Of a stretch of DNA of 64,000 nt, positions 385 to 61,408 are shown one piece after another (position 1 is the first letter of the stretch; the number at the start of each line of letters is the position of its first letter). Position numbers and translations under genes: made by a program. This DNA comes from a virus: positions 19,931-83,930 of the IMG/VR virus record IMGVR_UViG_3300029448_000010; one strand, 5' to 3'. The notes under the pieces were generated by a model. That model saw only the letters and a list, made by a program, of their open reading frames with translations, was not told the DNA's origin and did no database searches.

Positions 385-863
385 TCTTCTGCCTCCATTT
401 GCGATTGTTTTAGTATCTTTAGAATAAGGTCTGTATCTGCACCGTTTTCTAATTGTAGTATGGTAAGGTTAATCACTTGCTTCTGCCTTTCAGCAAAATC
501 TCTATCTTCTTTTAGAGAAACTAAAGACTCAAAAGCAGACCTAAAATCAGGAGTAAGAGTAAAACCAGCATCTTTAGCAAGTTTTTTTTCTAGACCAAGT
601 TTGTTTATCATAGCGACCTTTGGTGCGATTTCTGCATCCCAGTCATAATAGCGAGCATACAAGTTACGCAATTTGGCTAAAGAAATCCTTACCCTTTTCT
701 TGTAAAACTCTAGATGTCCTTCTATTTGTTTTTTAGACAAACTACTTATTTTGAAAACATTCCCTTTCGGGTCAGAAACATATCTAGTACTAGGTTTAGC
801 ATAAGTAGTTGAGGTTGGGTGAATTACATATCTATCATTTACTGCACTATATTCATCATTCAT
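381..863 (-). CDS. Unknown 160-residue helical protein
   Basis: I do not recognise this protein. It is charged and mostly helical by composition, with a Lys/Arg-rich middle and an acidic C-terminus (QMEAEE). There is no signal peptide, membrane segment or cysteine pair. Its start overlaps the ligase stop by four bases (ATGA) and its stop overlaps the start of the histone-fold gene, so it lies between two DNA-binding or DNA-acting genes in one translationally coupled operon. Confidence 0.75.
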   Translation of the reverse strand: MNDEYSAVNDRYVIHPTSTTYAKPSTRYVSDPKGNVFKISSLSKKQIEGHLEFYKKRVRISLAKLRNLYARYYDWDAEIAPKVAMINKLGLEKKLAKDAGFTLTPDFRSAFESLVSLKEDRDFAERQKQVINLTILQLENGADTDLILKILKQSQMEAEE

Positions 864-2398
864 ATTATCATCTCTATCATATCATCTAAGGTATTAATAT
901 CCGCAACAAACTTATCATCACGAATACGGACACATCTAGGAAATCTTAATCCATAGTTACCTTCTGCATCTTGTGTTATTAAATCAGCAGTTACTTCTAA
1001 AACCACTCTAGGCAAGAAGTGATAAGTGCCTTTATCGTAATTATCAACTTGCCTTCTTAATTCATTAGTTAATCTAACTAATTGACTATCACTAAAACCC
1101 GTACCGACAGAACCTAAATTAACATAACCGTCATTTTCAGTCCTTAGACCTATTCCAAAAGTACCGAATACATTTGCTCTTTTACCTTCACCATACTTAG
1201 CAGTTAGAATAACTACATCTAAGTTAATGCGTGGAGGTTTGTATTTAGCCCAACCTATACTTCTTTTACCTGCTTCATACGACATAGAAGCATCCTTTAC
1301 GATTATTCCTTCAAAGCCGTCATTAATTGCTCGACTGTAAAAGGCAAGAGTATCAACGCATTCATCCGGCATTCTATGTGCTTGATTAGGCAATCCTTTG
1401 AATTTGTTAAGTCTATCTCTATAAGATAATTCCATAATAGTTTCACCATTAAACTTTAGACAGTCAAAAATTACCCATTCAACGGGAACCTTTTCAATTG
1501 CTTCTGCATGGTCTTTAGAGTGAACCCTTGTACCCATCTTCTTGTGTTCTGCTGGCGTACCATCTTCATTAATAGGATATATTTCACCATCTAGTATAGC
1601 ATTAGGAATATCATATTCTCTAACAATATCCGCTACATCAGAAAACTGAGGAGTAACTACATTACCCTTACGATTAAAGATAATTACATTGTCTCCTTCT
1701 TTATGGATTTGATAACGATTACCGTCATACTTGTAGTCCACTATTTTATCAAGAGGCCATTTATTCATAGGTAGGTCTTTTGCTAACATAGGTGCTACAA
1801 AAGAACCATGCTCAAGATTCATTGGTGGCTCGGTATTAGATTCATAATACCGTGCAACATTGGAAATAGAATTAAAGTTACAATGCTTTTTGACATCAGA
1901 TAACTTCTTGTCATAATGTTTAGCCAATATCTTCTTTACTACTCCACTGTTAATCCCGTTGCGTGGTGTTCTTAACCAATACCTAATAAACCATTTACAT
2001 TCTAAAGCACTCATATTAATTATAGCATGTCTAATAGTATCATATGAATTACTGCTGATTGAGCCGCAATCCATAGAAAGAAGATTTAAAACAACTGGCA
2101 TAGGTGTTGCTTCTAATGTTTCTGCTGATACATCTAAGTAATATATTGCTTCTCCTAAATCATCGTGAGCCTTATATTCATCTTCTATTTCATCGTCATG
2201 AACATTGTATATCTTTGCCAACCATTTCTTAGCCTTTGAAAGACCTATATTGTTACTAGGATATTCTTTTGCTAGGATAGCAAATAAGGCTGGTTTATTA
2301 TGGAAGGTTTGAAGTTCCCTCGTAATCATAGATACCTGTTGTGTTGGTGTTCTTTGGTCTGTGCTTTCTAATAGTCTCGATAGTCTCATCATTGTCAT
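860..2398 (-). CDS. lig: ATP-dependent DNA ligase
   Basis: This protein of 512 residues seals nicks in duplex DNA using ATP. The N-terminal ligase domain is visible at about residues 125-150 (ECKWFIRYWLR). The nucleotidyltransferase core follows, with motif I KYDGNR (adenylated lysine near residue 223), motif III LDGE, motif IV EGIIVKD and motif V WAKYKPP, then an OB-fold region with FGTFGIGL. Architecture is that of archaeal/eukaryal-type ligases, slightly short. The ATG has the upstream sequence GGAGATG. Its first 100 bases overlap the preceding small gene. It is distinct from the ligase-like protein at 50.4 kb, which has lost the motif III glutamate. Confidence 0.95.
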   Translation of the reverse strand: MTMMRLSRLLESTDQRTPTQQVSMITRELQTFHNKPALFAILAKEYPSNNIGLSKAKKWLAKIYNVHDDEIEDEYKAHDDLGEAIYYLDVSAETLEATPMPVVLNLLSMDCGSISSNSYDTIRHAIINMSALECKWFIRYWLRTPRNGINSGVVKKILAKHYDKKLSDVKKHCNFNSISNVARYYESNTEPPMNLEHGSFVAPMLAKDLPMNKWPLDKIVDYKYDGNRYQIHKEGDNVIIFNRKGNVVTPQFSDVADIVREYDIPNAILDGEIYPINEDGTPAEHKKMGTRVHSKDHAEAIEKVPVEWVIFDCLKFNGETIMELSYRDRLNKFKGLPNQAHRMPDECVDTLAFYSRAINDGFEGIIVKDASMSYEAGKRSIGWAKYKPPRINLDVVILTAKYGEGKRANVFGTFGIGLRTENDGYVNLGSVGTGFSDSQLVRLTNELRRQVDNYDKGTYHFLPRVVLEVTADLITQDAEGNYGLRFPRCVRIRDDKFVADINTLDDMIEMII

Positions 2399-12134: not shown

Positions 12135-12472
12135 TCTTCCCACCTATCCATTATGTTACATACATTACAATCTTTTCCTTTACAGTTTTTATCATGATAC
12201 TGTAAAGCATCGTATCGTTGAATAAAGTTTTTCTTAGCATAGTGATTAAAACCAATATCCACTGCTTCGGGAAACTCCCATAGTATTACTTGTATGGTCT
12301 GCCAAAGCCTATATTTTTTATCTGATTCATCTTCTAAACCAGAACATGCGTTAAGGGCTAATTTAATTCTATCCTTGGCAGAATTAGACCATTCGTTATC
12401 ATAAGATACAATGACTCTTGCGAAGTCATCATATTTCAAATCACGAATATGTCTAATTCTGCGAGATTTCAT
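12131..12472 (-). CDS. Unknown 113-residue protein with C-terminal Cys/His cluster
   Basis: The N-terminal 80 residues are helical and charged (MKSRRIRHIRDLKYDDF). The C-terminus has HDKNCKGKDCNVCNIMD, which could bind zinc. Function unknown; it lies just downstream of the ribonucleotide reductase gene. Confidence 0.7.
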   Translation of the reverse strand: MKSRRIRHIRDLKYDDFARVIVSYDNEWSNSAKDRIKLALNACSGLEDESDKKYRLWQTIQVILWEFPEAVDIGFNHYAKKNFIQRYDALQYHDKNCKGKDCNVCNIMDRWEE

Positions 12473-12481
12473 CTAATCACC

Positions 12482-14350
12482 TTAGATTTCACATGCTCCG
12501 CCAGCACAAGCCAATTCGCCTGTTAAGTTAGTATCATCCTGTTCTTCAGTAACCTTAGTTAAATCAATCTTCTTCAGATTAACCATCATTTTATCATAGG
12601 TTTCTTTATCAATAGTTTCAAACGGTGCTTGTTTGTAAGTACCGCCATCATAAGGAAGAACAGAAAGACCATTGTAATAATGTCTATTCATCCATAGCCA
12701 TTCGCCCACATCATCCCATTCATCCTCTTTAACAGATAGAGTAGCGGAGACATTGTGAGTATTCAATCCATCAACATGCCCTGTTCTAACCCATCTAATG
12801 CTGAAATTCTTGACTCTCTCCATCAAATCAAATACTGATTCATGGCGAGTTATTGCATCTTGGGGTGCTTTTTGTGGTATAGAAATAACAGCCTGTTCTT
12901 CAGGATTAAAGTACTCATCCTCAACTAATTCAGGATGATTATTTAATAGATAAGAATAGATTGCTTCATTCTTTCCAACTCTAAGTCTTCTAACATAATA
13001 CTCATCATGCCATGCGTGAATACCGCTACTAGTACCTAATACTAAAGAAGTGGTTCCGGCAGGTTTTACACAAGTAATTCTTGCCGCAGGTTTAATCCCT
13101 ATCAACTTAGCAATTTTCTTATTCTCTTGCTTTGCCGCAAAGGAAGCCATTTCTAAATCTAAACCTTCCACGATATTAGAAGCAATACCTGTCATTGATA
13201 CTCCAAGTAAAGCATCCTTTTCAGTATTCTTACGCCATACTTCTCTTAGATAATGAAAGTCAGTATATCCGGCTTGAAGCGTTCCTAAGAATGCCGCCGC
13301 TTTTACTCTTGCTTCTAAGTCTGCTTGGTCTATTACATCAGAAGCATTTACTTCTGTTAGATTACAAAACTGATATGGTCGCAAGGCTATTTCACAACAA
13401 GGGTTAGTTCCCCAATCCTTGTCATTATTGAAATAGACCGCAGGTTCACCACTGCCACTATGTTGTATTCTTTCCCATAGACCCATAAAGAAGTCTTTAG
13501 TAACTCTATGTCTAAGGATTACTGCTGAATTGTTTGCTCTGCCTCTTTGTGGGTTGTTCTCCCACCAATTACCGGCTTTACAACTAATCATCTTTGAATC
13601 ATCAGCACTGAATAAACTAATCATAGCGGCTCTGCGAATACCACCGGCTAATACTGCATCTGCTAAATAACACATAATATCATGTGCTTCTATTGATTCT
13701 AATTTAGAGCCATTAGTTTTATTTTGAAGCATTCCTTCTATTTTAACTAAACATTCCCTTAATGGCTGAAAACCCGGTGCTTTTCCACCACTAGTCTTTA
13801 ATAGACTTCCTTTTGGTCTAATATCAGAATAATCAAAAATAGGACTACTACTCCTAATGCCGGTATAACACTCCAAAAGGATTCTAATTGAATCGGCCCA
13901 ACCTTCAATAGAGTCACTAATAAGATACCTGCGTTTTCTTTCGGGATTAGGTTGAATGATTTCTGGTAATTGCTCAACATGATGTCGTTGTACCGAATAT
14001 CCAACTCCCGTTCCACCGAGAAGTAAGAACATAGCCTCGCTAAAAGATAAAAGGGAATCAATAGGCATATAAGCACAATTATAAACCCTATTTGGGCTAA
14101 TTTCAATAGGCTTACCCCCAAATTGCATAGACCGCATAGAAGGGAGGACTTTCTTTGTTTTAACGAACTTTTCATATATTTCACCTATTTCTTTAGTTAA
14201 TTCAGGATATGATTTAATGTGCATATCTCGGTTTCTCTTGGTTATTTCTTCCCAAGTCTCTCTTCTTTTCTTTGCCGGTAAATACCTTGCATACTTCATA
14301 TGCACAGTAATATCCGATAATGTATCTATTGCTGTATTCATGTCTAACAC
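12482..14350 (-). CDS. nrdJ: Adenosylcobalamin-dependent (class II) ribonucleotide reductase
   Basis: This 622-residue enzyme converts ribonucleotides to deoxyribonucleotides. Family signatures in order are PSMRSMQFGG, NRVYNCAYMP (first redox cysteine), LLGGTGVGYSVQ, the active-site loop NPCCEIALRPYQFCNL (thiyl-radical Cys and Glu), and a C-terminal redox pair CAGGAC close to the end. No separate small subunit gene is adjacent, as expected for class II, which needs vitamin B12. Length is between monomeric RTPR (about 740) and short viral forms. It supplies dNTPs for genome replication. Note the NPCCEI sequence where NPCGEI is usual. Confidence 0.93.
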   Translation of the reverse strand: MLDMNTAIDTLSDITVHMKYARYLPAKKRRETWEEITKRNRDMHIKSYPELTKEIGEIYEKFVKTKKVLPSMRSMQFGGKPIEISPNRVYNCAYMPIDSLLSFSEAMFLLLGGTGVGYSVQRHHVEQLPEIIQPNPERKRRYLISDSIEGWADSIRILLECYTGIRSSSPIFDYSDIRPKGSLLKTSGGKAPGFQPLRECLVKIEGMLQNKTNGSKLESIEAHDIMCYLADAVLAGGIRRAAMISLFSADDSKMISCKAGNWWENNPQRGRANNSAVILRHRVTKDFFMGLWERIQHSGSGEPAVYFNNDKDWGTNPCCEIALRPYQFCNLTEVNASDVIDQADLEARVKAAAFLGTLQAGYTDFHYLREVWRKNTEKDALLGVSMTGIASNIVEGLDLEMASFAAKQENKKIAKLIGIKPAARITCVKPAGTTSLVLGTSSGIHAWHDEYYVRRLRVGKNEAIYSYLLNNHPELVEDEYFNPEEQAVISIPQKAPQDAITRHESVFDLMERVKNFSIRWVRTGHVDGLNTHNVSATLSVKEDEWDDVGEWLWMNRHYYNGLSVLPYDGGTYKQAPFETIDKETYDKMMVNLKKIDLTKVTEEQDDTNLTGELACAGGACEI

Positions 14351-40978: not shown

Positions 40979-42334
40979 GTGACAACGGCAGAAGAATACG
41001 ACGAAGCCTCTGAAAGAATGAAGCGTTTAGCGGAGTTAGAGAGAGAAAAGCAAGAAGAATTATCAGAAGTTCAAAATGATTTAAGCACTAAATTAACAGG
41101 AGTTTCTGATTATGTCATGTCTGATTATGAAGCAGTAAATACTTTATCCAAGAATCTAAATATTAATGCTACTGATGCTAGGAAACAACTATCCACATTT
41201 CCTTCTGAATATATTGTTGATGGTCAAAATATCCCAGACCTAGTAAGAAAAATGCGTAAAGCAAGAAGGAAACTAAAAGGAGATTCTAGAATAAGAATGT
41301 CTGAAACTATTGATACAGTTATTGATGGATATGCAGACCACATAAACAAATGTATTGATTCTATTTATTGGATTACTCCGTATAAGATTCCTCTATTGAA
41401 AATGAGATTCAACGAAAAAGATTTATCTAAATTAAATAAGATTTCAGAAGTTAAACAAAGAAGAAACATAGTTGATTCTCTTTGTAAATTATGGGAAATA
41501 GATTTAAACAAAACAGATATGGCTTTTGGTTCTAACTATGCTAAATTGGAAAAAGAATCTAGATTAGCAAAAAAGCAATTTAGAGAAGAGTTAAAGAAAA
41601 TTAGCGACCAATCTTTAATTAAATCTAAAAAGGAAAAGTCTTTAAATTTTATTTTAAAATCAATATGCGAAAATCCGGGAATTGGTATTGGAACTATTCA
41701 TGACCAAATGCCAAACAATTTACATAAAGCCAATTCAAGTAATACTATTTCTAAAATGATTAAGAAATTAGAAGTAGGTAGTATAAATGGTGCTTATTAT
41801 AAATTACCTAATGAATTAAAAAAGAATGTTTGGGCTTATACTGCCGCATTTATTGATTCCGACGGCTATATTACTATGGATAGAAACCATAATCCAAGAG
41901 TAGGGTTGGTTGCCACTGGAGAAAGAGGTAAGGTGTTTATGAATGAAATGCACAAATCTATTGGGTTTGGTAAGTTGCATTTAGACCAAAAATCCCCTCA
42001 AGATACACGGCCTGTTAATCGCTTAAACTTTTATTCACAAGGAGATGTAGTCAATCTATTAACTAAATGCTTACCACATTTCAGACTAAAGAAGGGTAAT
42101 GCTGAATTATTATTAGAATTAATTCGCATGAAAAAGTCACACAAGAAGGCTGATTGGTATAAGTCTAGGTGTGATGAGATATTCAAGTTAATGAAATGGG
42201 AGAACCATAAAGACCATGTTGGTTTTGATTTTGCTAAAGAAGGAATATATGTTGATGATATTTCTAAGTTACAAGGTAACTGTAAGATGTCTGCTATGGA
42301 TGAGTTAGAAGGTATTGGAGGTATGATAGTATGA
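40979..42334 (+). CDS. LAGLIDADG-type endonuclease-like protein, 451 residues
   Basis: It starts with GTG after GAGGTGGTT, ten bases after TerL. The N-terminal 200 residues are coiled/helical and unassigned; residues 215-285 look like a winged helix (NFILKSICENPGIGIGTIHD). Then AYTAAFIDSDGYITMD matches the LAGLIDADG core, with GLVATGERGKVFMNEMH and KSHKKADWYKSRC typical of homing endonucleases. One LAGLIDADG copy implies a homodimer. It could be a free-standing homing endonuclease or a domesticated packaging nuclease. Its last residues overlap the next tagged gene. Confidence 0.72.
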   Translation: MTTAEEYDEASERMKRLAELEREKQEELSEVQNDLSTKLTGVSDYVMSDYEAVNTLSKNLNINATDARKQLSTFPSEYIVDGQNIPDLVRKMRKARRKLKGDSRIRMSETIDTVIDGYADHINKCIDSIYWITPYKIPLLKMRFNEKDLSKLNKISEVKQRRNIVDSLCKLWEIDLNKTDMAFGSNYAKLEKESRLAKKQFREELKKISDQSLIKSKKEKSLNFILKSICENPGIGIGTIHDQMPNNLHKANSSNTISKMIKKLEVGSINGAYYKLPNELKKNVWAYTAAFIDSDGYITMDRNHNPRVGLVATGERGKVFMNEMHKSIGFGKLHLDQKSPQDTRPVNRLNFYSQGDVVNLLTKCLPHFRLKKGNAELLLELIRMKKSHKKADWYKSRCDEIFKLMKWENHKDHVGFDFAKEGIYVDDISKLQGNCKMSAMDELEGIGGMIV

Positions 42335-49970: not shown

Positions 49971-50362
49971 TGCCAGAAAGAGTAACTAAAGAAGAAAGAA
50001 TAGTGAGCCTTGCTATTGAAAAGGCTAGGAAAGCAAAGGAATTACTTCAACAAGAAAGCACTCATGAAAGATTGCCTCTTGAAGATGAATTGGTAGTTGA
50101 GAAAATTACACGGCCAAAGGCTAAAAATGTAAAGTTAATGAATCAAACAGACCAAAAAGAAGGATATGGTCTTGCTGGTGAGTCTATTGAACATACGATT
50201 AAAAAGAATATAAGGATTAAGCGACAAAGAGAAGGTAAAGAAATACTAGAATTATTAGATTCCTTGATTGGTAAAGAAATGACTACTTCTCATAAAGGTA
50301 AAATTGTATCATTAATGACTAGAATGCTATCCTCTGCTCAAGAAGATAATCTGCCTCAGTGA
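49970..50362 (+). CDS. Unknown basic 130-residue protein
   Basis: Unknown. Charged and helical (SLAIEKARKAKELLQQE; HTIKKNIRIKRQREG). No tag. It lies between the C-terminally tagged protein and the ligase-like protein. Ends in a conserved-looking QEDNLPQ. Confidence 0.65.
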   Translation: MPERVTKEERIVSLAIEKARKAKELLQQESTHERLPLEDELVVEKITRPKAKNVKLMNQTDQKEGYGLAGESIEHTIKKNIRIKRQREGKEILELLDSLIGKEMTTSHKGKIVSLMTRMLSSAQEDNLPQ

Positions 50363-50367
50363 TTTCT

Positions 50368-52896
50368 ATGCCAGCATCCGGCCTTCTATTTGAGAAGGGT
50401 AAAGCCTCTAATGAAATATTAAGATTATTTGAAAGAGTTAGAGTGGCGTATCTTTCTGCACGAACAGACCCCAAAGAATATGGGTCAAAGTGGCATAGTG
50501 CAGTGGAATACATTAGAGATGAATACGATGATTCAGAAGAGTTTGGAGAAGAATTAAAGAATTTCATCAATGATAAAGATTTAGAGCATGAAGATGCTAA
50601 GGATGCAACGACGACTACTGCTGAAAAGATATACGAATCTGTAAAAAATCTAAGGTACTCTTCTGACCAAGTTAGTGACCCCTTCTCTAAAAACTTCAAA
50701 GGTAATGTCCTTGAAGAATTACTTGATAATCCTGAATCAATGGTTAAATTCGTGCATTATGCTATGCGTTCAGACAATAAAGCACTTAAACCATCCATTT
50801 ACAGCGTTAAAGACATGGAACCTGACACAATTACAGAGGGTCTTATGGGACTTGACCTAGAAGTTGACGATATACCCCTCTATATTATAGAGCATTACGG
50901 TGACGGAAAAGACTCAAAGAAGGTCGGAAAGAAAGTTAAGGCTGCTATGTCTATGTTAGAACTATTATTCTTTTCTAAGCATGATGAAGAAGATTGGGAT
51001 GAATTAAAAGACATTGATATGGAAACTGATACTCCTAAGAAAATGATAACAAAGTCTGATACTGAAAAGGGAAAGACAGATTTTATTACTCCTAATAAGC
51101 CAATGTATAGAATCTTTGAGATAGATGATATGAAAGAACTAAAAGGGTTTAGTGGTGAGTATATTGTTCAAGAAAAGTATGACGGTATGAGAATACAAGT
51201 ACATAAGATAGATAATAAGATAAAAATATATTCATACGATGAAAAGGATATTACTAGTAAATGTAAAGAACAAGTCAAGGAATTAGAAAAGAAACACTTC
51301 GGAGATTGCATTCTAGATGGGACACTAGTGTTATTTGATGGTGATAATTCTTTATCTAGAGCAGAAGTTATTTCACAGGTATTTAGTGACAAAAATCCTG
51401 ACTTTAAACTAAAGGCTCATATGTTTGATATTATTAGACATAATGAAAAAACTATTGCTGATGAACCTTTGAATGATAGATTAAATATTATGTTTAATAA
51501 TTATTCAGTTCATTCAAGCGAATACCTTAACTTTCCTTCTAAAAAAGACACTCGTTTAGCAGACTCAATAGAAGATGTTGAGAAGTATGCTAAAGAAATA
51601 ATGGACATGCCAACAGCAGAGGGAGTAGTAATTAAAGATGCTACTTCAACTTATTACATAGGCACACGCAAAAATCCTAAATGGGTTAAGTGGAAGAGTT
51701 ATGTTGATTTAGATTTAATAGTATTAGATAAGAAAAAGAAAGGGAATACTTATTCCTATGCTTTAGGTGCTGGCCCAACAGAAGGCGAAGGCAAAGAATA
51801 CGAAACAATAGAAGGTAATACCTACATGAATGTAGGTAATGCAATTAATACTAAGATTGAAGTTGATGTTGGTTCTATTCTCAGAGTTAAAATAGACGAG
51901 GTAAAGAAGACAGGTGATAAATACTTAATTTATTCTGCTAAAGCAATAGAAGTACCTGAAGTGGAAATGCCTGACAAGTTAGTTACTTTGGAATTGTTAT
52001 CTAAAGACAATAAAAAAGAATTAAATTACGATGTTAAAGCATTAGAGAAAGGAATAGTAATTACTGATTATATTCACGGCGAAGCCTCTATTATTATTAA
52101 AAGTGACATGGATGGTTTTACTATCTATGGGTTTGATGAACATAATTTAATGGCTAAAAATGCTATGTTAGATTTAGATGTTTGGAAAACTCAAGCAGAA
52201 GAAATAATGAAAACGAAGCAATCCAAATTGACAGTAGCGGCATTTAATCATATGAAAGAAAAAGGCCCAAAAACTCCTAAAGAATTGCATAATTATTTAG
52301 TAAAGTCTCACTCTTCCCTTTATGAAGACATTTTAGATAGTAAATTGACAAGAGTAAAAGATTGGATGGAACAGAGGGATGGTATATCTTATGACGAAAA
52401 GACAAAGAAATTGTTTTCTGACCCTGATAAAATAATGCAAGAGACAAATATACTCAAGCAGTATAAAACACCTAAAGAATATCAAAATGGAAACTTTAAA
52501 TTATATCTAAGAGAAGATGAAAATTTAAACTTAGTAATTAAATTAAAAGATGAAACTTTGAATTGGCTGATAGATTTAGAAAAAGACGATGATATATTCA
52601 AATTGTTTGGTAAAGCCAATAAATACCCTGCACAAGTAGCACAGAACATATCTAAGAAGAAAATTATTGATTCTGGGAAAATAGGTCTTGGGGTACAGAA
52701 GAATGGCTATCACGAATACTTCCTAAAAGGAAATAAGTTTGAAACTAAATTGCATCTTAGAGTGCTAGAAGCAGAAGGTAAAACAATGTGGTTAGCATGG
52801 ACTGGCTACAAACAGAAGCCAGCAGACAAAGAAGGTGATGCTGGCTTATGGAATATTTACGAGGATAGGTATAGAAAAATACCACTTCCTGAATAA
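50368..52896 (+). CDS. ATP-dependent DNA ligase-like large protein, 842 residues
   Basis: Unrelated charged N-terminal 240 residues precede a nucleotidyltransferase core. Motif I is EKYDGMRIQVHK (lysine about residue 270), motif III is LDGTLVLFDGD, motif IIIa HMFDIIRHNEK, motif IV EGVVIKD and motif V WVKWKSYVDLDLIVL, followed by an OB-like region. In motif III the Glu of LDGE is replaced by Thr, which may abolish or alter sealing. The C-terminal 200 residues end in a distinct domain (LHLRVLEAEGKTMWLAWTG). Position between portal and protease implies a virion or prohead protein. A complete ligase already exists at 860-2398. Confidence 0.82.
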   Translation: MPASGLLFEKGKASNEILRLFERVRVAYLSARTDPKEYGSKWHSAVEYIRDEYDDSEEFGEELKNFINDKDLEHEDAKDATTTTAEKIYESVKNLRYSSDQVSDPFSKNFKGNVLEELLDNPESMVKFVHYAMRSDNKALKPSIYSVKDMEPDTITEGLMGLDLEVDDIPLYIIEHYGDGKDSKKVGKKVKAAMSMLELLFFSKHDEEDWDELKDIDMETDTPKKMITKSDTEKGKTDFITPNKPMYRIFEIDDMKELKGFSGEYIVQEKYDGMRIQVHKIDNKIKIYSYDEKDITSKCKEQVKELEKKHFGDCILDGTLVLFDGDNSLSRAEVISQVFSDKNPDFKLKAHMFDIIRHNEKTIADEPLNDRLNIMFNNYSVHSSEYLNFPSKKDTRLADSIEDVEKYAKEIMDMPTAEGVVIKDATSTYYIGTRKNPKWVKWKSYVDLDLIVLDKKKKGNTYSYALGAGPTEGEGKEYETIEGNTYMNVGNAINTKIEVDVGSILRVKIDEVKKTGDKYLIYSAKAIEVPEVEMPDKLVTLELLSKDNKKELNYDVKALEKGIVITDYIHGEASIIIKSDMDGFTIYGFDEHNLMAKNAMLDLDVWKTQAEEIMKTKQSKLTVAAFNHMKEKGPKTPKELHNYLVKSHSSLYEDILDSKLTRVKDWMEQRDGISYDEKTKKLFSDPDKIMQETNILKQYKTPKEYQNGNFKLYLREDENLNLVIKLKDETLNWLIDLEKDDDIFKLFGKANKYPAQVAQNISKKKIIDSGKIGLGVQKNGYHEYFLKGNKFETKLHLRVLEAEGKTMWLAWTGYKQKPADKEGDAGLWNIYEDRYRKIPLPE

Positions 52897-52945
52897 TGAG
52901 CCGATTCTTTAATATAGTCATTAAAATTACAAGGGGTTGAAGACT

Positions 52946-54169
52946 ATGAGCATTAGTGTCATGGCATCTAGGAATAATGATTTCAGGATTCTTAAAAGTG
53001 ATGAATTAATGATTGGTGGTTATGCAAGCATCGAAGTTGTGGATAAACAAAACGATTTAATTACACTAGAAGCATTAAATACCGCAGTTAAAAAGTTTAT
53101 GGATGATAAGAAATTCAGAAATGTAATGACAAATCATTCTAATGTTCAAGTTGGTGAAGTAATAGACTCTTATCGAGATAAAAGTGGAAAACTATGGAAA
53201 TCAGAAGTTGATGATGTAGGATTTTTTGTAGTAATAAAGTTAAGAGATGATATAGAAAAAGCCAAAGAAGTTGGAAGAGGTATTCGTAAAGGAACATTAA
53301 GGTCTTTTAGTATCGGTGGACAAGCATTACAAAAGGTAAAGAAAAGTCACGGTGAATTAGGCGAATACAACGAAATTAGTAAATTAGAACTCCATGAGGT
53401 AACAATCTGTGAAAAAGGAATTAACCCCGAAGCAAAGTTTGATATTTTAAAAAGAGATAAAGGAGATGAAAAAATGAGTGATAAACTTGAGAAAGCATTG
53501 AATGAGTTGGATATACTTCTAAAAGAAGTTGAAGAACTTAAGGGCGACGAAGAGGAAATGGCTGAATACGCTGAATCCGAATCTGATGAAAACATGGAAA
53601 TGGCAGATGAAGAAGAAATGGCAGATGAAGAAGAAATGGCAGATGAAGAAGAGATGATGGGTGGAACACACCCTGCTTACAAGGATGGTGCAGAAAAAGC
53701 ATATCTTCGTACTCTTGATGGCGCAGGTAATCAAATTGGAGAACCAGCAGACCGTATTGTAATTAACAATGGTAAGCCTACTGCAACCGATATGCCGGTA
53801 GTTAAGGCATTTAACAACGGAGAGTTTGATACTCTAAACCTTTCTAATTCTAACATTGAAAAGGCATACGAAGCATTCCGTCAAGAACAACTTGAAGCAC
53901 TTGCATACGACAACCTACGAAAGTCTTTTGAAACTCGTTTTGAGTCTGAAAAGGCAAACCGTGAGAATGTTCTAGCAAAGTCTCAATATGACGCACAGGC
54001 TGAAATTGCTTCCATGAAGCAAGAGTTTAGCGACCTACGCAAGTCTCTTACTGCTGAAAAAGAAACTATTCTAAAGGCACAAGAAGAGTCAGTAATTAAA
54101 ATGCCAAGCATTGAAGAGATTTCATCAATGGATTGGTCAGATATTCACAAGATGGTGAACAACAGATAA
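52946..54169 (+). CDS. HK97-type prohead protease fused to scaffold, tag at C-terminus
   Basis: This 407-residue fusion has an N-terminal serine protease: TNHSNVQVGEV (catalytic His64), GTLRSFSIGG (Ser122) and LHEVTICEKGINPEAKF (Glu151 region), as in HK97 gp4/herpes assemblin-like proteases. Residues 175-240 are acidic with three tandem 18-base repeats (MADEEE). The C-terminal 150 residues are a helical scaffold with coiled coil (RFESEKANRENVLAKS). It ends SMDWSDIHKMVNNR, matching the tag found at the start of at least 21 other proteins. The start at ATG 52946 follows AAGGGGTTGAAG. The scaffold would be degraded on maturation, freeing the interior. Confidence 0.9.
   Translation: MSISVMASRNNDFRILKSDELMIGGYASIEVVDKQNDLITLEALNTAVKKFMDDKKFRNVMTNHSNVQVGEVIDSYRDKSGKLWKSEVDDVGFFVVIKLRDDIEKAKEVGRGIRKGTLRSFSIGGQALQKVKKSHGELGEYNEISKLELHEVTICEKGINPEAKFDILKRDKGDEKMSDKLEKALNELDILLKEVEELKGDEEEMAEYAESESDENMEMADEEEMADEEEMADEEEMMGGTHPAYKDGAEKAYLRTLDGAGNQIGEPADRIVINNGKPTATDMPVVKAFNNGEFDTLNLSNSNIEKAYEAFRQEQLEALAYDNLRKSFETRFESEKANRENVLAKSQYDAQAEIASMKQEFSDLRKSLTAEKETILKAQEESVIKMPSIEEISSMDWSDIHKMVNNR
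53600..53653 (+). repeat. Three tandem 18-bp repeats in the scaffold gene
   Basis: ATGGCAGATGAAGAAGAA occurs three times in succession (the last with GAG), encoding MADEEE repeats in the linker between protease and scaffold. Slippage could change copy number. Confidence 0.85.
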
Positions 54170-54179
54170 GGTGATTAAG

Positions 54180-55514
54180 ATGACAGGATATATTAACACA
54201 ATAGCAGATTTAGAAGCACAAACATATGGAATGAATCTTCCAGCCGGTAATGCCTTGCTAAAGCAAGCAGGTATGGTTGGTGGAATACACACAGGACATG
54301 ACGGTTCTCCGTCATTTAGCGGTTCAGCCGTTTCTGATGTATCAGCCCTATACAATGTAGTTTACGGACAAAAGGTTTGGTCTATGCTAAACCGTGAAGT
54401 TAACGCATTGTCTATGATTTCAAAGCGACCTTACACTTCAAGTGGATGGAGAGTACTAAAGAGCAGACCTGCGGGTGGTTCTGGTAATCTCTTTACAGTT
54501 GATAAAGCAGATACTTCCCTTACATTGGGAGAATTGGGTTCAGACACACCAAGAGCAGACGCAATTGGTGGTGTACCAGAAAATGCAGGTCTTTCAACCG
54601 CACAAGATGGATTGGGGCCAATTGCACCAACTTATGCTCAATTGAACATGAGTCCTAAAGTAGTTGCTCATCAATTTGATTTCAGCGAGTTGGCTATGGA
54701 AATGGCACAAATTGACGATGGTATCGGAGATATTAGAGCGCAAATGCGTGAAGATATGGGTAAGCACCATGCAGAAGTACAAAACAAGATGCTTGTTATG
54801 CCACTACAATTTTACGGTGAAGCAACTCTATTGCCTAACATTGGTAACAATTATACTTCTTTGCTAAAGGTAGTTACTTCAAAGGCTGAATTAGACCTAT
54901 TGGATGCACAATCTTCTCTAATGACAGATGGTGCTACTGCAACAAATGTAAGTCACATTTACGGTACAAACCGTGATAGTGCTTCATTCCTTGATTCAGA
55001 AGTTGACCAAGGTACTTCCTATGCGGCAACAGATGTTAGGTCACTAACTCTAACTTTGCTAAATAACATGGTTCGTAACTTGAGACTTGCTGGTGGTTCA
55101 CCAAAGGTTATTCTAACCGGATATGATACCATTCAAGCAATTGCAGACCTATTGCAAAGCCAAGAAAGATTCATGGATAGAAAGGAAATTGTACCAACAG
55201 TTAACGGTGTTCGTGGAACAAAGGGTCAAGAAGTCGGATTTAGAGTAGCAACATACTACGACATTCCACTAATTCCTGTAAAGGACATGACACAAACTGG
55301 ACTTGCTTCAACTAAACTATCTGACCTATTATTCCTTGATACAGACCATCTATGGTTATCTGTTATGAAGCCAACTCAATACTTTGAGGATGGTATCGCT
55401 AATGGAAACCCATTCGGTGTAGGAACACTAGGAAACCGTGCATTGTACCGTACTATCGGTGAAGTCGGTTGTTCGTTCTTCAAGGGTCAAGGTAAAATAA
55501 CTAACATACAGTGA
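54180..55514 (+). CDS. Major capsid protein, HK97 fold
   Basis: This 444-residue protein directly follows the protease-scaffold gene. Codon choice and strong ribosome binding sequence (AAGGTGATTAAG) suit an abundant protein. The N-terminal helical region, extended loop (SGWRVLKSRPAGGSG), spine helix (EMAQIDDGIGDIRAQMRED) and P-domain strands (PKVILTGYDTIQAIADLL; VATYYDIPLIPVKDM) are typical of archaeal-virus HK97 capsids. Final TIGEVGCSFFKGQGKI is the C-terminal A-domain strand. Whether the protease trims its N-terminus cannot be told from the sequence. Confidence 0.9.
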   Translation: MTGYINTIADLEAQTYGMNLPAGNALLKQAGMVGGIHTGHDGSPSFSGSAVSDVSALYNVVYGQKVWSMLNREVNALSMISKRPYTSSGWRVLKSRPAGGSGNLFTVDKADTSLTLGELGSDTPRADAIGGVPENAGLSTAQDGLGPIAPTYAQLNMSPKVVAHQFDFSELAMEMAQIDDGIGDIRAQMREDMGKHHAEVQNKMLVMPLQFYGEATLLPNIGNNYTSLLKVVTSKAELDLLDAQSSLMTDGATATNVSHIYGTNRDSASFLDSEVDQGTSYAATDVRSLTLTLLNNMVRNLRLAGGSPKVILTGYDTIQAIADLLQSQERFMDRKEIVPTVNGVRGTKGQEVGFRVATYYDIPLIPVKDMTQTGLASTKLSDLLFLDTDHLWLSVMKPTQYFEDGIANGNPFGVGTLGNRALYRTIGEVGCSFFKGQGKITNIQ

Positions 55515-56528: not shown

Positions 56529-56585
56529 TTTTAACCGGCAGTGTTAATAGAGAGGCGTAGCCTCCCTAAAACAGAAGGTGATGAT

Positions 56586-56885
56586 ATGACATTTGGTTGT
56601 AGGTCTAGCGGCGTATTAGGCGCAAGTAAATTAATTGTAACAGGTAAAACAAAGTTAGTTAGCATACATGCGGCTCTTTTTATTACCGGCGGAACAGCCG
56701 CAACGATTAATGTATATGACGGTTTGGATAATTCTGGCACTAAAATAGCCATGATTAAACATTCGACTAATGGATATTATAATTATGAATATGATATGCA
56801 CGGAGTTTTGTGCAATACAGGTCTATTCTTAGAAGTAATTGAAGCGGGTTCTTCCACTGTTGATGTTTCAGTGGAATTTGCTTGA
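56586..56885 (+). CDS. Small beta-rich protein, 99 residues
   Basis: Start at MTFGCRSSGVLG after AGGTGATGAT. Gly/Ala/Ser-rich beta-type sequence (KLVSIHAALFITGGTAA; VLCNTGLFLEVIEAGSS) similar in style to phage decoration domains or receptor-like beta sandwiches. Position in the head cluster. No family assigned. Confidence 0.6.
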   Translation: MTFGCRSSGVLGASKLIVTGKTKLVSIHAALFITGGTAATINVYDGLDNSGTKIAMIKHSTNGYYNYEYDMHGVLCNTGLFLEVIEAGSSTVDVSVEFA

Positions 56886-56895
56886 GGTGTTTAAT

Positions 56896-57288
56896 ATGGC
56901 AGTAATGAATCAAGATACTAGGTTAATTATGACGATTCTATTCGTTGGTACTGTTAGTGGAGCAAATGTTTATTTCTATGCTTCTTACGGTTCTAATTTC
57001 CCATACACTCAATTATCTCATGCTGTATTGTTTGGGCTAATCACAGTGGGCGGAATTATGGTTCTTAAAGCAGTGTTTGATTTAGCACTAAATGATAAGA
57101 TTGAAATTCGACTATTAGATAGACGAATAGCGGCTTATTGGGAACGAAAAAAGCGTGATGAGCAACAAAGACAAAGGCTCCAAGATACTATGAAACAGTA
57201 TCAAACTACATTTAATACTACACCATTAACCCCTGCGTATGAATCTGAAAATACGGTATCAAACCAATTTTTAGCAGAATTACAATGA
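56896..57288 (+). CDS. Membrane protein, 130 residues, two predicted spans
   Basis: Hydrophobic segments at about residues 9-28 (LIMTILFVGTVSGANVYFYA) and 41-62 (HAVLFGLITVGGIMVLKAV), then a basic cytoplasmic coil (RIAAYWERKKRDEQQRQRL). Start after GAGGTGTTTAAT. Adjacent to another membrane protein and a GTPase. Confidence 0.65.
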   Translation: MAVMNQDTRLIMTILFVGTVSGANVYFYASYGSNFPYTQLSHAVLFGLITVGGIMVLKAVFDLALNDKIEIRLLDRRIAAYWERKKRDEQQRQRLQDTMKQYQTTFNTTPLTPAYESENTVSNQFLAELQ

Positions 57289-57297
57289 GGTGATTAA

Positions 57298-57513
57298 GTG
57301 GTATTTGGCGACATAATGGGTTTTAGTGAATCCGACTATGTGTATAATCAAAGCAGGGCGCATTCTGCTGACATGTTTTTTATCAAGGCTAGATTTTGGT
57401 TTTGGGGAATAACTGCTACGGTTGCTGGTTTTTTAGCAGGTAATATAATGGGTGTCTTTGACATCAATATTATGGGTTGGATAGTAAATACAGTAAAGGA
57501 TTTATTTCATTGA
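57298..57513 (+). CDS. Membrane protein, 71 residues, one span (GTG start)
   Basis: Reads MVFGDIMGFSESDYV from GTG after GAGGTGATTAA. A span at about residues 30-55 (FWFWGITATVAGFLAGNIMG) and an amphipathic end (WIVNTVKDLF). It precedes the GTPase gene by 13 bases. Confidence 0.6.
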   Translation: MVFGDIMGFSESDYVYNQSRAHSADMFFIKARFWFWGITATVAGFLAGNIMGVFDINIMGWIVNTVKDLFH

Positions 57514-57526
57514 TGTGGTGTTATGA

Positions 57527-58189
57527 ATGTCAATGATAGCAGGGTTCGCAGTAGTTGTAACGGAGGCTTGTATTGCTTTTTGGAAAAGAGTACATGCAAT
57601 TAATTTTGGTGTTTATGGGGCTACAATGGTTGGAAAAACAACATTAAGTTATCAAATGAGAACAAGGGGAGAAGTACAAACTATTCAAGAAAGAACAGTA
57701 GGCCTACATAGACCTACTAGAAAGGTTATTAAATTAGAAGGAGATGTGCATACCATTAGAAGTTCTGATATAGGGGGAGAAGCGATATATTGGAAAGAAT
57801 GGGCTAAAGATATGCAAGTTAGAAAACCTAAATATGTTATTTTTATGATAGACCATAGACATTTAGATAGTCCAGCCAATTTAGACCACCAAGTAGCATG
57901 GAAATTTTTAGTTGATATTATATTAAGTGATAGATGGCCGAGTGGTAAAAAGAAAAAAGATAAAGATTATCCTATGGCAATTGGTATTTGGGCTAATAAA
58001 TATGATATTTGGGGAGATAAATACAAGTCTAACCGTGAAATAGATAAGCATGAGATATTTGACCCATTTACTTATGGTATGAGAAAACTAAATGATAAAG
58101 GAATACCTACTTACAAATATATAGTTTCAGCAAAATCAGACCCCGAAATGGTGTATAGAGGAATCACTACAATGATAAAAGATTATTGA
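57527..58189 (+). CDS. Ras/Arf-like small GTPase with N-terminal hydrophobic segment
   Basis: This 220-residue protein has the GTPase G motifs in order: P-loop GATMVGKTT (residues 31-39), DIGG as G3 (81-84, DxxG), ANKYD as G4 (156-160, NKxD) and SAKS as G5 near the end. Residues 3-20 are hydrophobic (MIAGFAVVVTEACIAFW), a likely membrane or amphipathic anchor. A G2 threonine cannot be fixed by eye. Virus-encoded small GTPases in a structural-gene cluster are unusual. It may control membrane or tail interactions, or act in the host cell. Confidence 0.8.
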   Translation: MSMIAGFAVVVTEACIAFWKRVHAINFGVYGATMVGKTTLSYQMRTRGEVQTIQERTVGLHRPTRKVIKLEGDVHTIRSSDIGGEAIYWKEWAKDMQVRKPKYVIFMIDHRHLDSPANLDHQVAWKFLVDIILSDRWPSGKKKKDKDYPMAIGIWANKYDIWGDKYKSNREIDKHEIFDPFTYGMRKLNDKGIPTYKYIVSAKSDPEMVYRGITTMIKDY

Positions 58190-58198
58190 GGAATTAAA

Positions 58199-58870
58199 AT
58201 GTATCAACAACCGAACTTAATAGGAACTAATGTTCCAATAACACCAAATCAAAGCAACCCAAGTCAAATGCAATCATTTTCTTTGAATAAATTTTTACCT
58301 AAATTACAACAATTTAGAGCCGCAGGGAATATATCAGAATATAGTTATGATAGTATTAAACCTAAAAAGAAACTAAAAGAAATTAAAAAGATTTTATATC
58401 CTGAAAAGAAAAGTTTTCTAAAAATTAAATATGGATTTAAGTTTAATTTTAAAGACATATGTGTTGTTTGTGGGACTCATCATGTTTGGGAATCAGGAGA
58501 CTTTTTGAGGCCACCTATACCTTTAGATAAAGTAACTAAAGGTAGGCCACTAAGAGGAACCTATTGTCAAAAACATGCAGGTATTCATAAGCAAATGGAA
58601 ATGCTTCAACAGCAGATTTTAGCAGAAGAACATGGGTTAGATTTTAAGGCATTTATCCCAAAGGCAAGAATGCCGAAGATGCTATCAAGGTCAGGGCCGT
58701 TAACTACCTTAACAAAAGAAGAGGTAATGACGCTTACGGCGGGGGGATGGTTTATTAAGCCACCCACCATCACAGACAATGAGACTACTATGGCTGAAAT
58801 AGTCAGATTAGTAGCGGAAATAGGTTTAACTACCGAAAGATTGAATTTTTTAATAGGTAAGGAGGAATGA
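58199..58870 (+). CDS. Zinc-binding protein, 223 residues
   Basis: Gln/Asn/Pro-rich N-terminus, then a basic part (KPKKKLKEIKKILYPEKK), then a zinc site: CVVCGTHH, later YCQKHAGIH, arranged C-x2-C...C-x2-H. C-terminal part includes GGWFIKPP and a helix (TMAEIVRLVAEIGLTTERL). Directly follows the GTPase, suggesting linked function. No family assigned. Confidence 0.65.
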   Translation: MYQQPNLIGTNVPITPNQSNPSQMQSFSLNKFLPKLQQFRAAGNISEYSYDSIKPKKKLKEIKKILYPEKKSFLKIKYGFKFNFKDICVVCGTHHVWESGDFLRPPIPLDKVTKGRPLRGTYCQKHAGIHKQMEMLQQQILAEEHGLDFKAFIPKARMPKMLSRSGPLTTLTKEEVMTLTAGGWFIKPPTITDNETTMAEIVRLVAEIGLTTERLNFLIGKEE

Positions 58871-58872
58871 AT

Positions 58873-59532
58873 ATGGGATTTTTAGGAACAAGTAATGGAA
58901 CAGTAATGAATGCGGTTAATGCACAAAGCGACCAGCAGTTTAAGAATGTAAGTAACTTACTTTCTTTGCAAGAGAACCATGTCGAGGAATTTTTTCAGTA
59001 TCATGGAAAAGAGTTTTTATCGGCTATGGAAAAACTAATAGAAGATGTTGTGGAAAGAGCAGTTAGTCAGATGCTAACTAAGTTAGTATTCGTACAAGAC
59101 TCCACTAGCGGGACTATGAAATTGCAATCAGGTTCTTTATCTGAATTTGAGAAAATTACTCAAGAAAACATTGAGTTAGATTTAACAAGACTATTAGATT
59201 CAGCAATTAATTCAGAAGTAATTAATCAAAGAAAAATGGCTAAACAACAATACTTAGAATCTCAAGGATTTTCTTCTCCGCAGGGAGGTCAACAAGTTGG
59301 AGTAGGTTTGGCAGTAGCGGGATTAACCGGACAAACGCAACAGTTCCAACAAATGCAAAACGCTACCAATAACGGCAGTGGTTATCCTATTCCACCAAAC
59401 GGTACAGACGGATATGGTAGGCCATATTGGTTAGATGCTCAAGGTAATATGACACTTGAGCCACCATCTTCGGGATTAGGTCTAGGAGGCGCAATTCAAA
59501 AAGGTGCGGCTTGGGCTAAATGGTTAATGTGA
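58873..59532 (+). CDS. Unknown 219-residue protein
   Basis: Helical first half with a coiled coil (ENHVEEFFQYHGKEFLS; AMEKLIEDVVERAVSQM) and a Gly/Gln-rich flexible end (GQQVGVGLAVAGLTGQ; GDGYGRPYWLD-like segment). The tail resembles a surface- or membrane-exposed region. Starts at MGFLGTSNG. Function unknown. Confidence 0.6.
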   Translation: MGFLGTSNGTVMNAVNAQSDQQFKNVSNLLSLQENHVEEFFQYHGKEFLSAMEKLIEDVVERAVSQMLTKLVFVQDSTSGTMKLQSGSLSEFEKITQENIELDLTRLLDSAINSEVINQRKMAKQQYLESQGFSSPQGGQQVGVGLAVAGLTGQTQQFQQMQNATNNGSGYPIPPNGTDGYGRPYWLDAQGNMTLEPPSSGLGLGGAIQKGAAWAKWLM

Positions 59533-59542
59533 TGGTGATTAA

Positions 59543-61408
59543 GTGGAAATAATTTACAGTGGTGCTGGCGGTTCAGCCGTCGAATGGACTACTGATTATG
59601 CTAGTAATCAAATGCAGTATTATATTTTTAGTAAATACATAGATTCTAGAAAGAAGGATTTGAATGATATTAATAGATATATCGAAGCCATTCCTAAACT
59701 AAATGAAGAATTTGATGCTGATAAATTTAGACAAATAACTACAAAAGCATTTAATGATATTAAATCAAAAAAGATTAGTCAGTTATCTGTATTAAATGAT
59801 TTTAGTAATAAATTTTATTTTAAAGAGTTAGTCGAAAATTATACCATTGAAGAACTATCTAGAGATAAGACACTAGATAAAATAACAAGAGAAACTGCTA
59901 GGGTTGACTTTTCTGATGAAATAGAAGATGGATGGACTAACGATTTTAATAGTTACTTTAACACTTTATGGGAAACTAAAAAGACTGAAAAAGACCAAAA
60001 AAGTAAAGAACAAGTAATGCCTGTAAAGGAAACAAAAACCAAGACAGGTCGAAAAACTAGAAGAGTTATTATTCTAGATGAACAGGAGTTAAAACCTGAA
60101 TTGCCAAATAAAGGCGCACCTAAGAATAAACTTGAAAAACTAAGTGACTTAGGTTTTGATTGGATTTATGGTCAAACGATGAGTCAGGATATTAATTTAA
60201 AAGACACTAAGGTAGGTCATGAAGATGTTATGCGATTCGGTAAAGAAGGAAGACCAGCACAGATTATTGATGCTGATTTAATGCAATCATTCGATAAGTT
60301 CTATAATAGGGCTAAAAGAGAAAAAGGAACAGGGGCTACTGCTCCTAAAAAAGTATTTGATTTACCTTTTGTTTTTACAAGGACTCTCTATTTCATAGAA
60401 GAAATCAAAGAAGATTTAGATAATTGGTTAAAGACTTGGGAAAGTTCTAAAGGCATGAAATTGTCTGATAAGGAAAAGGAAAAGAAAAAGAAAATAGATA
60501 GGTACTACAAGTTAACTAAACCCATACGAGAAGAAATGAAAAAAGAAATGGAAGTATATGACGAAGTTGACAAAGAGTTTGATGCCATAGAAAATAAAAT
60601 AAAAAAGGGCATTCTTCTTAGTGAAGAGGAATTGACTAGAATAGATAAAATTAAAATTACAGAAAAACCCATAGTGAGATTAGATTTAGAAGAAGATGAA
60701 GAAGATGAAGAAGATGAAGAAGATGAAGAAGAATCTGATGAAGTCCAAGCAACTGAAAGATATGTTGAAACCGACGAAAAGATAGTATTTAGTGAAGAAT
60801 ACGAAGCCAATAAAGAAAATTTAAAGGATGAAAAGGTTATAAAACATTTACTTGAAACCTTTTCTTATGCTACATCAGCCTATGATGATATAATCGAAGA
60901 TAAGTGGAAAGGTTGGTTAGAGCAATACCAAAAATTAGGCAAACAATTATTTAAAGAGTTTGAAGCCAAATTAGGTATAAAAAGAGAAAAAACCACTTTA
61001 AGTTCCGCCGATGAAAAAAAGGCATGGTCTAATCCTAAAAGTTTTATAAAAACAAATAAAGGCATAATTAGAGCCTTAAATGATTTAAAAACATTATACA
61101 CAATAAAGTTAGTAGTAACAGAAACGATTACTAAAGATAAAGAAGGAAAGGAAAAGCCACCCAAATATACAGTCAATACCTTTATGTTAACTGCAAAACA
61201 AGAGTTAGTTCCTCCTATTGTTCCAAAAGGAAAGGGTGGAGGAAGTGAAGCCTCTCCTTTTAAGCAAAGACCGTCAATTCCTCATATTAGGGGAGAAGGT
61301 TCTCCTTTATCTGGGTTTGATAAAGAACCTTATGAAGTTAGCAGAGATATTAATTTATTCGCTAAAAGAATAAATAAAAAATTAAAGCAATTAAATATGG
61401 TGATTTGA
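59543..61408 (+). CDS. Acidic-repeat protein, 621 residues (GTG start)
   Basis: Starts at GTG after GATGGTGATTAA. Large and Lys/Glu-rich, with an acidic repeat (EDEEDEEDEEDEEES) near residue 390 encoded by a 6-base GAAGAT repeat. It resembles the giant charged proteins of the terminase cluster. There is a Pro/Gly-rich C-terminal stretch (PPIVPKGKGGGSEASP). No tag or enzyme motif. Function unknown; a virion protein by position. Confidence 0.72.
   Translation: MEIIYSGAGGSAVEWTTDYASNQMQYYIFSKYIDSRKKDLNDINRYIEAIPKLNEEFDADKFRQITTKAFNDIKSKKISQLSVLNDFSNKFYFKELVENYTIEELSRDKTLDKITRETARVDFSDEIEDGWTNDFNSYFNTLWETKKTEKDQKSKEQVMPVKETKTKTGRKTRRVIILDEQELKPELPNKGAPKNKLEKLSDLGFDWIYGQTMSQDINLKDTKVGHEDVMRFGKEGRPAQIIDADLMQSFDKFYNRAKREKGTGATAPKKVFDLPFVFTRTLYFIEEIKEDLDNWLKTWESSKGMKLSDKEKEKKKKIDRYYKLTKPIREEMKKEMEVYDEVDKEFDAIENKIKKGILLSEEELTRIDKIKITEKPIVRLDLEEDEEDEEDEEDEEESDEVQATERYVETDEKIVFSEEYEANKENLKDEKVIKHLLETFSYATSAYDDIIEDKWKGWLEQYQKLGKQLFKEFEAKLGIKREKTTLSSADEKKAWSNPKSFIKTNKGIIRALNDLKTLYTIKLVVTETITKDKEGKEKPPKYTVNTFMLTAKQELVPPIVPKGKGGGSEASPFKQRPSIPHIRGEGSPLSGFDKEPYEVSRDINLFAKRINKKLKQLNMVI
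60689..60737 (+). repeat. GAAGAT/GAAGAA microsatellite inside the 621-residue gene
   Basis: The tandem (GAAGATGAA)n-like repeat encodes alternating Glu-Glu-Asp. It may vary in copy number by replication slippage. Confidence 0.85.

What the first reader, a model, noticed from the sequence alone, without database searches (positions are those of the whole stretch)
57527..58189. Ras/Arf-like GTPase with membrane anchor in the virion cluster
Seen directly: GATMVGKTT, DIGG, NKYD and SAK in order, an N-terminal hydrophobic segment, and two small membrane-protein genes just upstream with a zinc protein downstream. Established: viral small GTPases are rare. Inference: the membrane-GTPase group forms an unusual module, perhaps for virion-membrane contact at entry or assembly.
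Basis: partly seen in the sequence, partly recalled or inferred. Interest (0 to 1): 0.7.

Follow-up and report, generated by a model that had tools for sequence, protein, structure and literature searches.

The report
Archaeal tailed virus small GTPase module
Marine archaeal tailed viruses carry, among their capsid genes, a Ras/Arf-type molecular switch with a probable membrane-binding tail, inherited with four partner genes and as conserved as the capsid protein, which points to an unrecognised membrane step in building or releasing these viruses.

Summary
Window 57527-58189 encodes a 220-aa small GTPase. All G motifs are invariant in 150 of 150 distinct homologues (149 from fetched loci plus the window). 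Profile and fold searches point to Ras-superfamily GTPases, though every sequence score is weak. No kinase family competes.

The virus resembles the marine archaeal "magroviruses". The GTPase belongs to a block of five genes, not four: a two-helix membrane protein, a one-helix membrane protein, the GTPase, a zinc protein and a 221-aa protein. In loci fetched by capsid protein rather than by the GTPase, 30 of 42 distinct loci spanning the region have all five and 12 have none; no partial sets occur. The GTPase is as conserved as the major capsid protein (median pairwise identity 65% vs 64%), with median dN/dS 0.16.

Best reading: a membrane-tethered GTP switch acting with its partners in virion assembly or release at the host membrane. 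The GTPase identity is well supported, the membrane anchor likely, the function inferred. I found no mention of it in the literature searched, which lacks three key magrovirus papers. In passing, 18 late ORFs share an N-terminal MxWxxIIK-like tag.

The parts
57527..58189 (+). Small GTPase, 220 aa; N-terminal hydrophobic helix (residues about 2-22) then G domain (about 24-220)
   Evidence: ORF; motifs invariant in 150 of 150 distinct homologues; Pfam GTPase families; model and fold comparison
56896..57288 (+). TM1: small membrane protein, two hydrophobic segments and a charged C-terminal tail; the listed ORF opens earlier at a TTG (56839), the conserved start is the ATG at 56896
   Evidence: Hydropathy and consensus of 118 homologues; present in every GTPase-bearing spanning locus
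57298..57513 (+). TM2: 71-aa membrane protein, one hydrophobic segment, conserved RAHSAD motif
   Evidence: Hydropathy and consensus of 118 homologues; linkage
58199..58870 (+). Zn: protein with conserved CxxC...CxxH, probable zinc site
   Evidence: Consensus of 118 homologues; linkage
58867..59532 (+). g221: fifth linked gene, 221 aa, conserved N-terminal part and C-terminal AWAKWL end, function unknown
   Evidence: Consensus of 118 homologues; linkage
54171..55514 (+). Major capsid protein (context)
   Evidence: SU10_MCP E 3e-6, phrog_24667 major head protein E 1.6e-25
52937..54169 (+). Prohead protease (context)
   Evidence: Peptidase_S78 E 3.9e-9, phrog_23555 E 1.9e-16
56541..56885 (+). 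g114: fast-evolving decoration-like gene that borders the block upstream
   Evidence: Synteny; median identity 36%, dN/dS 0.58; 'decoration-like' is inference from size and position

Best explanation
A GTP-driven switch of the Ras superfamily, closest in motif and modelled fold to the Arf/G-alpha branch, held at the host membrane by its N-terminal helix. Shown here: the GTPase motifs, the five-gene all-or-none linkage, the late-gene position, and purifying selection at least as strong as on the capsid protein. Inferred: the five proteins form one membrane complex (TM1 and TM2 as membrane partners, the GTPase as nucleotide-controlled recruiter, the zinc protein and g221 as effectors or bridges to the capsid) that couples head assembly or particle release to the host membrane. 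GTP binding would change the exposure of the N-terminal helix and recruit the partners; hydrolysis would reset the complex.
For: Invariant G motifs in 150 of 150. GTPase families dominate Pfam matches; fold matches are Ras-superfamily GTPases. Block of five all present in 30 and all absent in 12 of 42 distinct capsid-led loci, none partial; same order and strand in 118 of 118. Median identity 65%, highest of 14 head-tail genes compared and level with the capsid protein's 64%; dN/dS 0.16, lowest of 8 genes compared. Two membrane proteins and a hydrophobic N-terminal helix. TM2-GTPase gap of 1-15 nt in 64 of the 78 first-set loci measured.
Against: Sequence scores are weak and the models modest (mean pLDDT 62 and 66). 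Membrane insertion is uncertain: E13 invariant and only 87 of 149 reach the hydropathy threshold. No homologue of TM1, TM2, Zn or g221 of known function was found, so complex formation and the step are guesses. Close relatives (druskaviruses and one marine clade) build the same kind of head without the block, so it is not needed for head assembly as such.
Confidence: 0.45

Rival explanations
1. Lysis or egress module proper: TM1/TM2 act as holin-like membrane proteins and the GTPase times or shapes membrane opening at the end of infection.
For: Small membrane proteins in a late cluster; block absent in relatives that include haloarchaeal viruses, whose hosts have another envelope (envelope difference recalled).
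Against: Lies inside the head gene cluster and is as conserved as the capsid protein, unusual for lysis genes (recalled).
Confidence: 0.2
2. Virion component acting at entry: the five proteins are carried in the particle and the GTPase helps genome delivery across the host membrane.
For: Location among virion genes; genes with an N-terminal tag that may be a packaging signal insert on both sides of the GTPase.
Against: None of the five block proteins carries that tag (consensus sequences and alignment); small GTPases in virions of tailed viruses are not known to me (recalled).
Confidence: 0.15
3. Host-directed effector: the GTPase mimics a host Ras/Arf-like regulator (for example of polarity, motility or membrane traffic) and reprograms the infected cell.
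For: Cellular small GTPases do such work (recalled); the Ras-superfamily fold is shown.
Against: Strict linkage to four other genes within the head cluster; no cellular close relative found in one narrow scan of genome contigs.
Confidence: 0.12
4. A P-loop ATPase or kinase of another family that only resembles a GTPase.
For: Weak AAA-type Pfam matches: ATPase_2 18, AAA_14 8, AAA_24 5 of 55 members.
Against: NKxD and SAK invariant in 150 of 150; GTPase-family matches more frequent and stronger; the fold rows shown are Ras-superfamily GTPases or complexes and fusions that contain one.
Confidence: 0.03

Closest known systems
Arf/Arl/Sar1 family small GTPases
   Same: DxGG(E/Q) G3 motif, Trp eleven residues after the G3 Asp (motif comparison recalled), a membrane-active N-terminal helix before the G domain (recalled for Arf/Sar1), fold matches to Arl3, Arl1, Arl2 and Arf6 at Z about 10.5.
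   Different: Distance T57-D81 is 24 residues, longer than Arf's about 19 (recalled); no Gly2 for myristoylation; Pfam Arf reaches only 12 of 55 members, best E 2e-4.
Signal recognition particle receptor beta (SRPRB)
   Same: N-terminal membrane segment followed by a small GTPase domain (recalled); Pfam SRPRB matches 44 of 55 members, best E 8e-5.
   Different: Viral, no SRP receptor alpha partner in the block; scores of the members whose table was shown lie under the cut-off.
G-protein alpha subunits
   Same: DxGG(E/Q) motif; highest VIA Z 11.1.
   Different: No inserted helical domain (220 aa in all); Pfam G-alpha in 13 of 55 members only.
Rab/Ras-like GTPases of giant eukaryotic viruses
   Same: Virus-encoded Ras-superfamily GTPases; BFVD rows include Pithovirus, Bodo saltans virus and Tupanvirus proteins.
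   Different: No BFVD match below E 0.001; those are viruses of eukaryotes, and the proteins are not in a head gene block (recalled).
Druskaviridae (HVTV-1, HCTV-1)
   Same: Related prohead protease (31-32%) and capsid protein (25-27%) in the same order.
   Different: No GTPase in the whole records and none of the other four block genes.

Membership tests
Ras superfamily / small GTPase | G1 P-loop GxxxxGK(S/T) | tested here: met
   GATMVGKT; G31, G36, K37, T38 invariant in 150 of 150
Ras superfamily / small GTPase | G2 threonine in switch I | tested here: met
   T57 invariant in 150 of 150; its role as the switch I Thr is by position, as residues 34-72 are poorly modelled
Ras superfamily / small GTPase | G3 DxxG | tested here: met
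   D81, G83, G84 invariant; residue 85 E 136, Q 14
Ras superfamily / small GTPase | G4 NKxD and G5 SAK | tested here: met
   Invariant in 150 of 150
Ras superfamily / small GTPase | Profile score above a curated cut-off | tested here: not met
   Window: MMR_HSR1 14.0 bits against 21.9, TIGR00231 13.6 against 42.5. Diverse members reach E 5e-5 to 1e-4
Ras superfamily / small GTPase | Fold of six strands and five helices around the nucleotide | tested here: met
Models of modest confidence
Ras superfamily / small GTPase | GTP binding and hydrolysis | not testable with these tools
   Needs purified protein
Arf family | Short interswitch and N-terminal myristoylated amphipathic helix | tested here: inconclusive
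   T57-D81 spacing is 24 (Arf about 19, recalled); residue 2 is Ser in 147 of 150, so no myristoylation site; a hydrophobic N-terminal helix is present
Nucleoside/other P-loop kinase | Match to kinase families in place of GTPase families | tested here: not met
   No nucleoside kinase family among the 19 families listed for 55 members
Known phage protein family (PHROGs) | Match to a PHROG | tested here: not met
   Only E 0.14 or worse for the window GTPase; none for two diverse members at E 0.5
Anti-phage defence system component | Match to PADLOC-DB models | tested here: not met
   None for three GTPases, TM1, TM2 and Zn; one weak match, E 0.017, for g221
Magrovirales (virus carrying the gene) | Tailed-virus head module, family B polymerase and chaperonin, two gene clusters in opposite direction | tested here: met
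   against the descriptions in PMC10768690 and PMC12999244; reference genomes not available, so no family is assigned

The most novel reading that the evidence does not exclude
A five-protein, GTPase-switched membrane machine is a core part of the head module of a major group of marine archaeal viruses: a Ras/Arf-type switch used by a tailed virus to run a membrane step of capsid assembly or particle release, without a described counterpart in phages.
Probability: 0.35. Interest if true: 0.82.

Novelty: new variant of a known kind. Interest (0 to 1): 0.62.

Why it matters
Viruses of Poseidoniales are known only from metagenomes, and how archaeal tailed viruses assemble at, or leave through, the membrane is largely unknown (recalled). 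A small GTPase as conserved as the capsid protein, with four obligate partner genes, gives defined candidates for that step. It also adds a tailed-virus case to the short list of virus-encoded Ras-superfamily switches, and a lineage that may matter for the history of Arf/G-alpha-like GTPases in archaea.

Tried and rejected
Single-sequence search of PDB: no match at E 1. PHROGs: no convincing family for the GTPase. INPHARED phages: no match. Genome contigs: one match, a contig with the whole head block in a Maricaulis MAG, so a virus contig and not a cellular gene; the patterns used were narrow, so cellular relatives are not excluded.

AmoC as a marker of thaumarchaeal hosts rang nowhere, not even in the controls, so it says nothing. 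Chaperonin: 3 of 12 records. PolB: 6 of 11 records, none of the four block-less marine records, all possible fragments; the host of that clade is unknown.

The capsid-protein tree (68 of 131 rows, quick method) puts block carriers on one side of one branch, but with support of only 69 and long-branch warnings: one gain or one loss is possible, neither is shown.

Nucleoside kinase: rejected, because NKxD, SAK and DxGG are invariant and GTPase profiles dominate. Defence component: no PADLOC match for the GTPase. Zn protein against PDB: one chance-like match, E 0.072.

Literature: 'magrovirus' with 'GTPase' 0 papers; 'GTPase, Poseidoniales, virus' 1, an Asgard review seen only in the listing; searches gave nothing relevant in their listings. 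In five papers of which I saw passages, 'GTPase' occurs 0 times; three ICTV profiles were read whole. Philosof 2017, Prabhu 2025 and Zhou 2023 are not held, so a mention there is possible.

Sampling limits: searches kept 80 of 205, 379 and 386 relatives. GTPase-led loci contain the GTPase by construction, so presence/absence is quoted from the capsid-led set.

Full report
What it is. Window 57527-58189 (+) encodes 220 residues starting at a conserved Met-Ser (M1 in 131 and S2 in 147 of 150). The sequence carries GATMVGKT, T57, DIGGE, NKYD and SAK. I collected homologues from viral contigs in three scans: 205 relatives (80 kept), 386 (80 kept) and 379 capsid-protein relatives (80 kept). From these, 199 loci gave 149 distinct full GTPases; with the window there are 150, which share 55-93% identity with the window. 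Every G-motif residue listed above is invariant. The residue after the G3 glycines is E in 136 and Q in 14; by recall this is the Ras Gln61 position. W89 and W92 are invariant; a Trp eleven residues after the G3 Asp is, by recall, shared by Arf and G-alpha.

Family placement. Sequence profiles are weak but point one way. The window alone scores MMR_HSR1 E 0.058 and NCBIfam small_GTP E 0.043, with relatives down to 6e-5. Over 55 diverse members the Pfam counts are MMR_HSR1 53, SRPRB 44, Roc 43, Ras 38, ATPase_2 18, G-alpha 13, Arf 12, GTP_EFTU 9, AAA_14 8, AAA_24 5 and nine families in one or two members each. A profile of those 55 against PDB sequences gives Ras proteins at best E 0.053, with a GTP-binding protein (8oun) and Arl proteins among the rows shown. 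AlphaFold models are of modest quality: mean pLDDT 62 with 23 sequences and 66 with 55, residues 34-72 of the second below 50. The VIA second look gives Z 10.4-11.1 to G-alpha and Arl/Arf chains. I file it as a divergent Ras-superfamily small GTPase with Arf/G-alpha-like features, not as an Arf: its 24-residue T57-D81 spacing does not fit the roughly 19 of Arf (recalled).

Membrane anchor. Residues 2-22 form a helix in both models, with a 19-residue hydropathy of 1.81 in the window. Over 149 sequences the median is 1.62, 87 of 149 reach 1.6, and 114 of 149 are favourable on the octanol scale. E13 is invariant in 150 of 150. A membrane-inserting amphipathic helix is at least as likely as a transmembrane span.

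Context. The record is an 83,930-bp virus contig, of which the window is 19931-83930. The window has a minus-strand cluster up to about 26 kb and a plus-strand cluster after it. It has a prohead protease and an SU10-like capsid protein, and the record has a chaperonin and two PolB fragments. This matches published descriptions of magroviruses of marine Poseidoniales archaea. The capsid protein is 25-27% identical to druskavirus capsid proteins. Reference magrovirus records were not in the collections, so no family is assigned.

The module. With iterated profiles for each neighbour I examined 157 loci that span from the capsid gene to the next conserved head-tail gene (372 aa in the window), 130 after removing repeats of the same capsid DNA. 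In 118 the genes TM1, TM2, GTPase, Zn and g221 are all present, in order, on one strand; in 12 all five are absent; there is no partial case. Since many loci were fetched through the GTPase, the fair figure is the capsid-led set: 42 distinct spanning loci out of 80 fetched, 30 with all five and 12 with none. The 12 are eight from the druskavirus part of the capsid tree and four from one marine clade, L104, L131, L132 and L134. Whole-record searches of eight block-less records found no GTPase. In L131, L132 and L134 an open frame of 1000-1027 codons follows the decoration-like gene directly.

Selection. Among the 118, median pairwise identity is GTPase 65%, capsid 64%, protease 58%, g221 58%, TM1 52%, Zn 52%, the 372-aa gene 51% and TM2 44%; six further genes range from 25% to 49%. 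Median dN/dS over pairs with dS 0.3-1.5 is GTPase 0.16, Zn 0.21, capsid 0.22, g221 0.23, TM1 0.25, the 372-aa gene 0.32, TM2 0.33 and the border gene g114 0.58. The pairs are not independent, so these figures are descriptive.

How it probably works. A GTP-dependent switch anchored in the host membrane, with two small membrane partners, a zinc protein and g221, acting in the late phase on head assembly or release. Linkage, order and conservation are shown; the complex, its location and the step are inferred. Release/lysis proper, action at entry, and host-directed signalling remain open rivals. The block is not needed for building this type of head as such, because druskaviruses and one marine clade lack it.

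Insertions beside the GTPase. Of distinct junctions, 16 of 153 (TM2-GTPase) and 30 of 151 (GTPase-Zn) have a gap of 150 nt or more, against 1 of 152 (g114-TM1), 0 of 149 (TM1-TM2) and 2 of 150 (Zn-g221). In 13 of the 16 and 23 of the 30 the insert holds an ORF that begins with an MxWxxI(L/I)K-like tag. The same tag starts 18 late-strand ORFs of the window, against 0 of 311 internal start codons used as control. A shared N-terminal tag on many small late proteins resembles, by recall, the capsid targeting sequence of phage T4. A search for 'capsid targeting sequence' with 'archaeal virus' found 0 papers. None of the five block proteins shows the tag in its consensus.

Novelty. PHROGs, INPHARED and BFVD show no close relative. 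No held paper combines magrovirus with GTPase, but three relevant papers are not held. I rate it a new variant of a known kind: a known fold in an apparently undescribed viral module.

Noticed in passing
ORF starts on the + strand at 27373, 27887, 28534, 28860, 29410, 30897, 31247, 32160, 32393, 33201, 33469, 38642, 39118, 42331, 42521, 42790, 43147, 45407: 18 late-strand ORFs of 65-216 aa begin with M(0-2 residues)WxxI/V-I/L-K, e.g. MSWKNILK; 0 of 311 internal start codons match. Tagged ORFs also sit in 36 of the 46 insertions beside the GTPase gene in relatives. It may be a capsid-targeting or prohead-protease tag on packaged proteins (inference).
   Followed up: partly
52937-54169 (+), C-terminus: The prohead protease ends with SSMDWSDIHKMVNNR, which resembles the N-terminal tag of the 18 ORFs (seen by eye).
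   Followed up: no
50359-52896 (+): 845-aa protein directly upstream of the prohead protease reads like an ATP-dependent DNA ligase (EKYDGMR motif by eye), besides the ligase-like ORF at 860-2398 (-). PMC7318539 (passage) mentions a ligase and a prohead protease gene on one stretch of a group A magrovirus.
   Followed up: no
59543-61408 (+): Large protein with a long Glu/Asp run follows the block. The slot always holds an ORF (547-810 codons in the 12 rows shown), yet only 4 of the 85 loci then held, the window's own included, gave a tblastn match.
   Followed up: partly
40979-42334 (+): ORF after the terminase contains AFIDSDGYI, which looks like a LAGLIDADG-type homing endonuclease motif (by eye).
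   Followed up: no
L131, L132, L134 downstream of the capsid gene: Marine relatives without the five-gene block have a 1000-1027-codon open frame right after the decoration-like gene.
   Followed up: partly
L082 (NZMJ01000024.1): A contig filed in a Maricaulis MAG carries the whole magrovirus-like head block; probably a misbinned virus contig.
   Followed up: no
G000:C1:10877-11323 and 12321-12842 (outside the window): The record's family B polymerase matches lie in two separate open frames, as described for a split PolB in Aoguangviridae.
   Followed up: no
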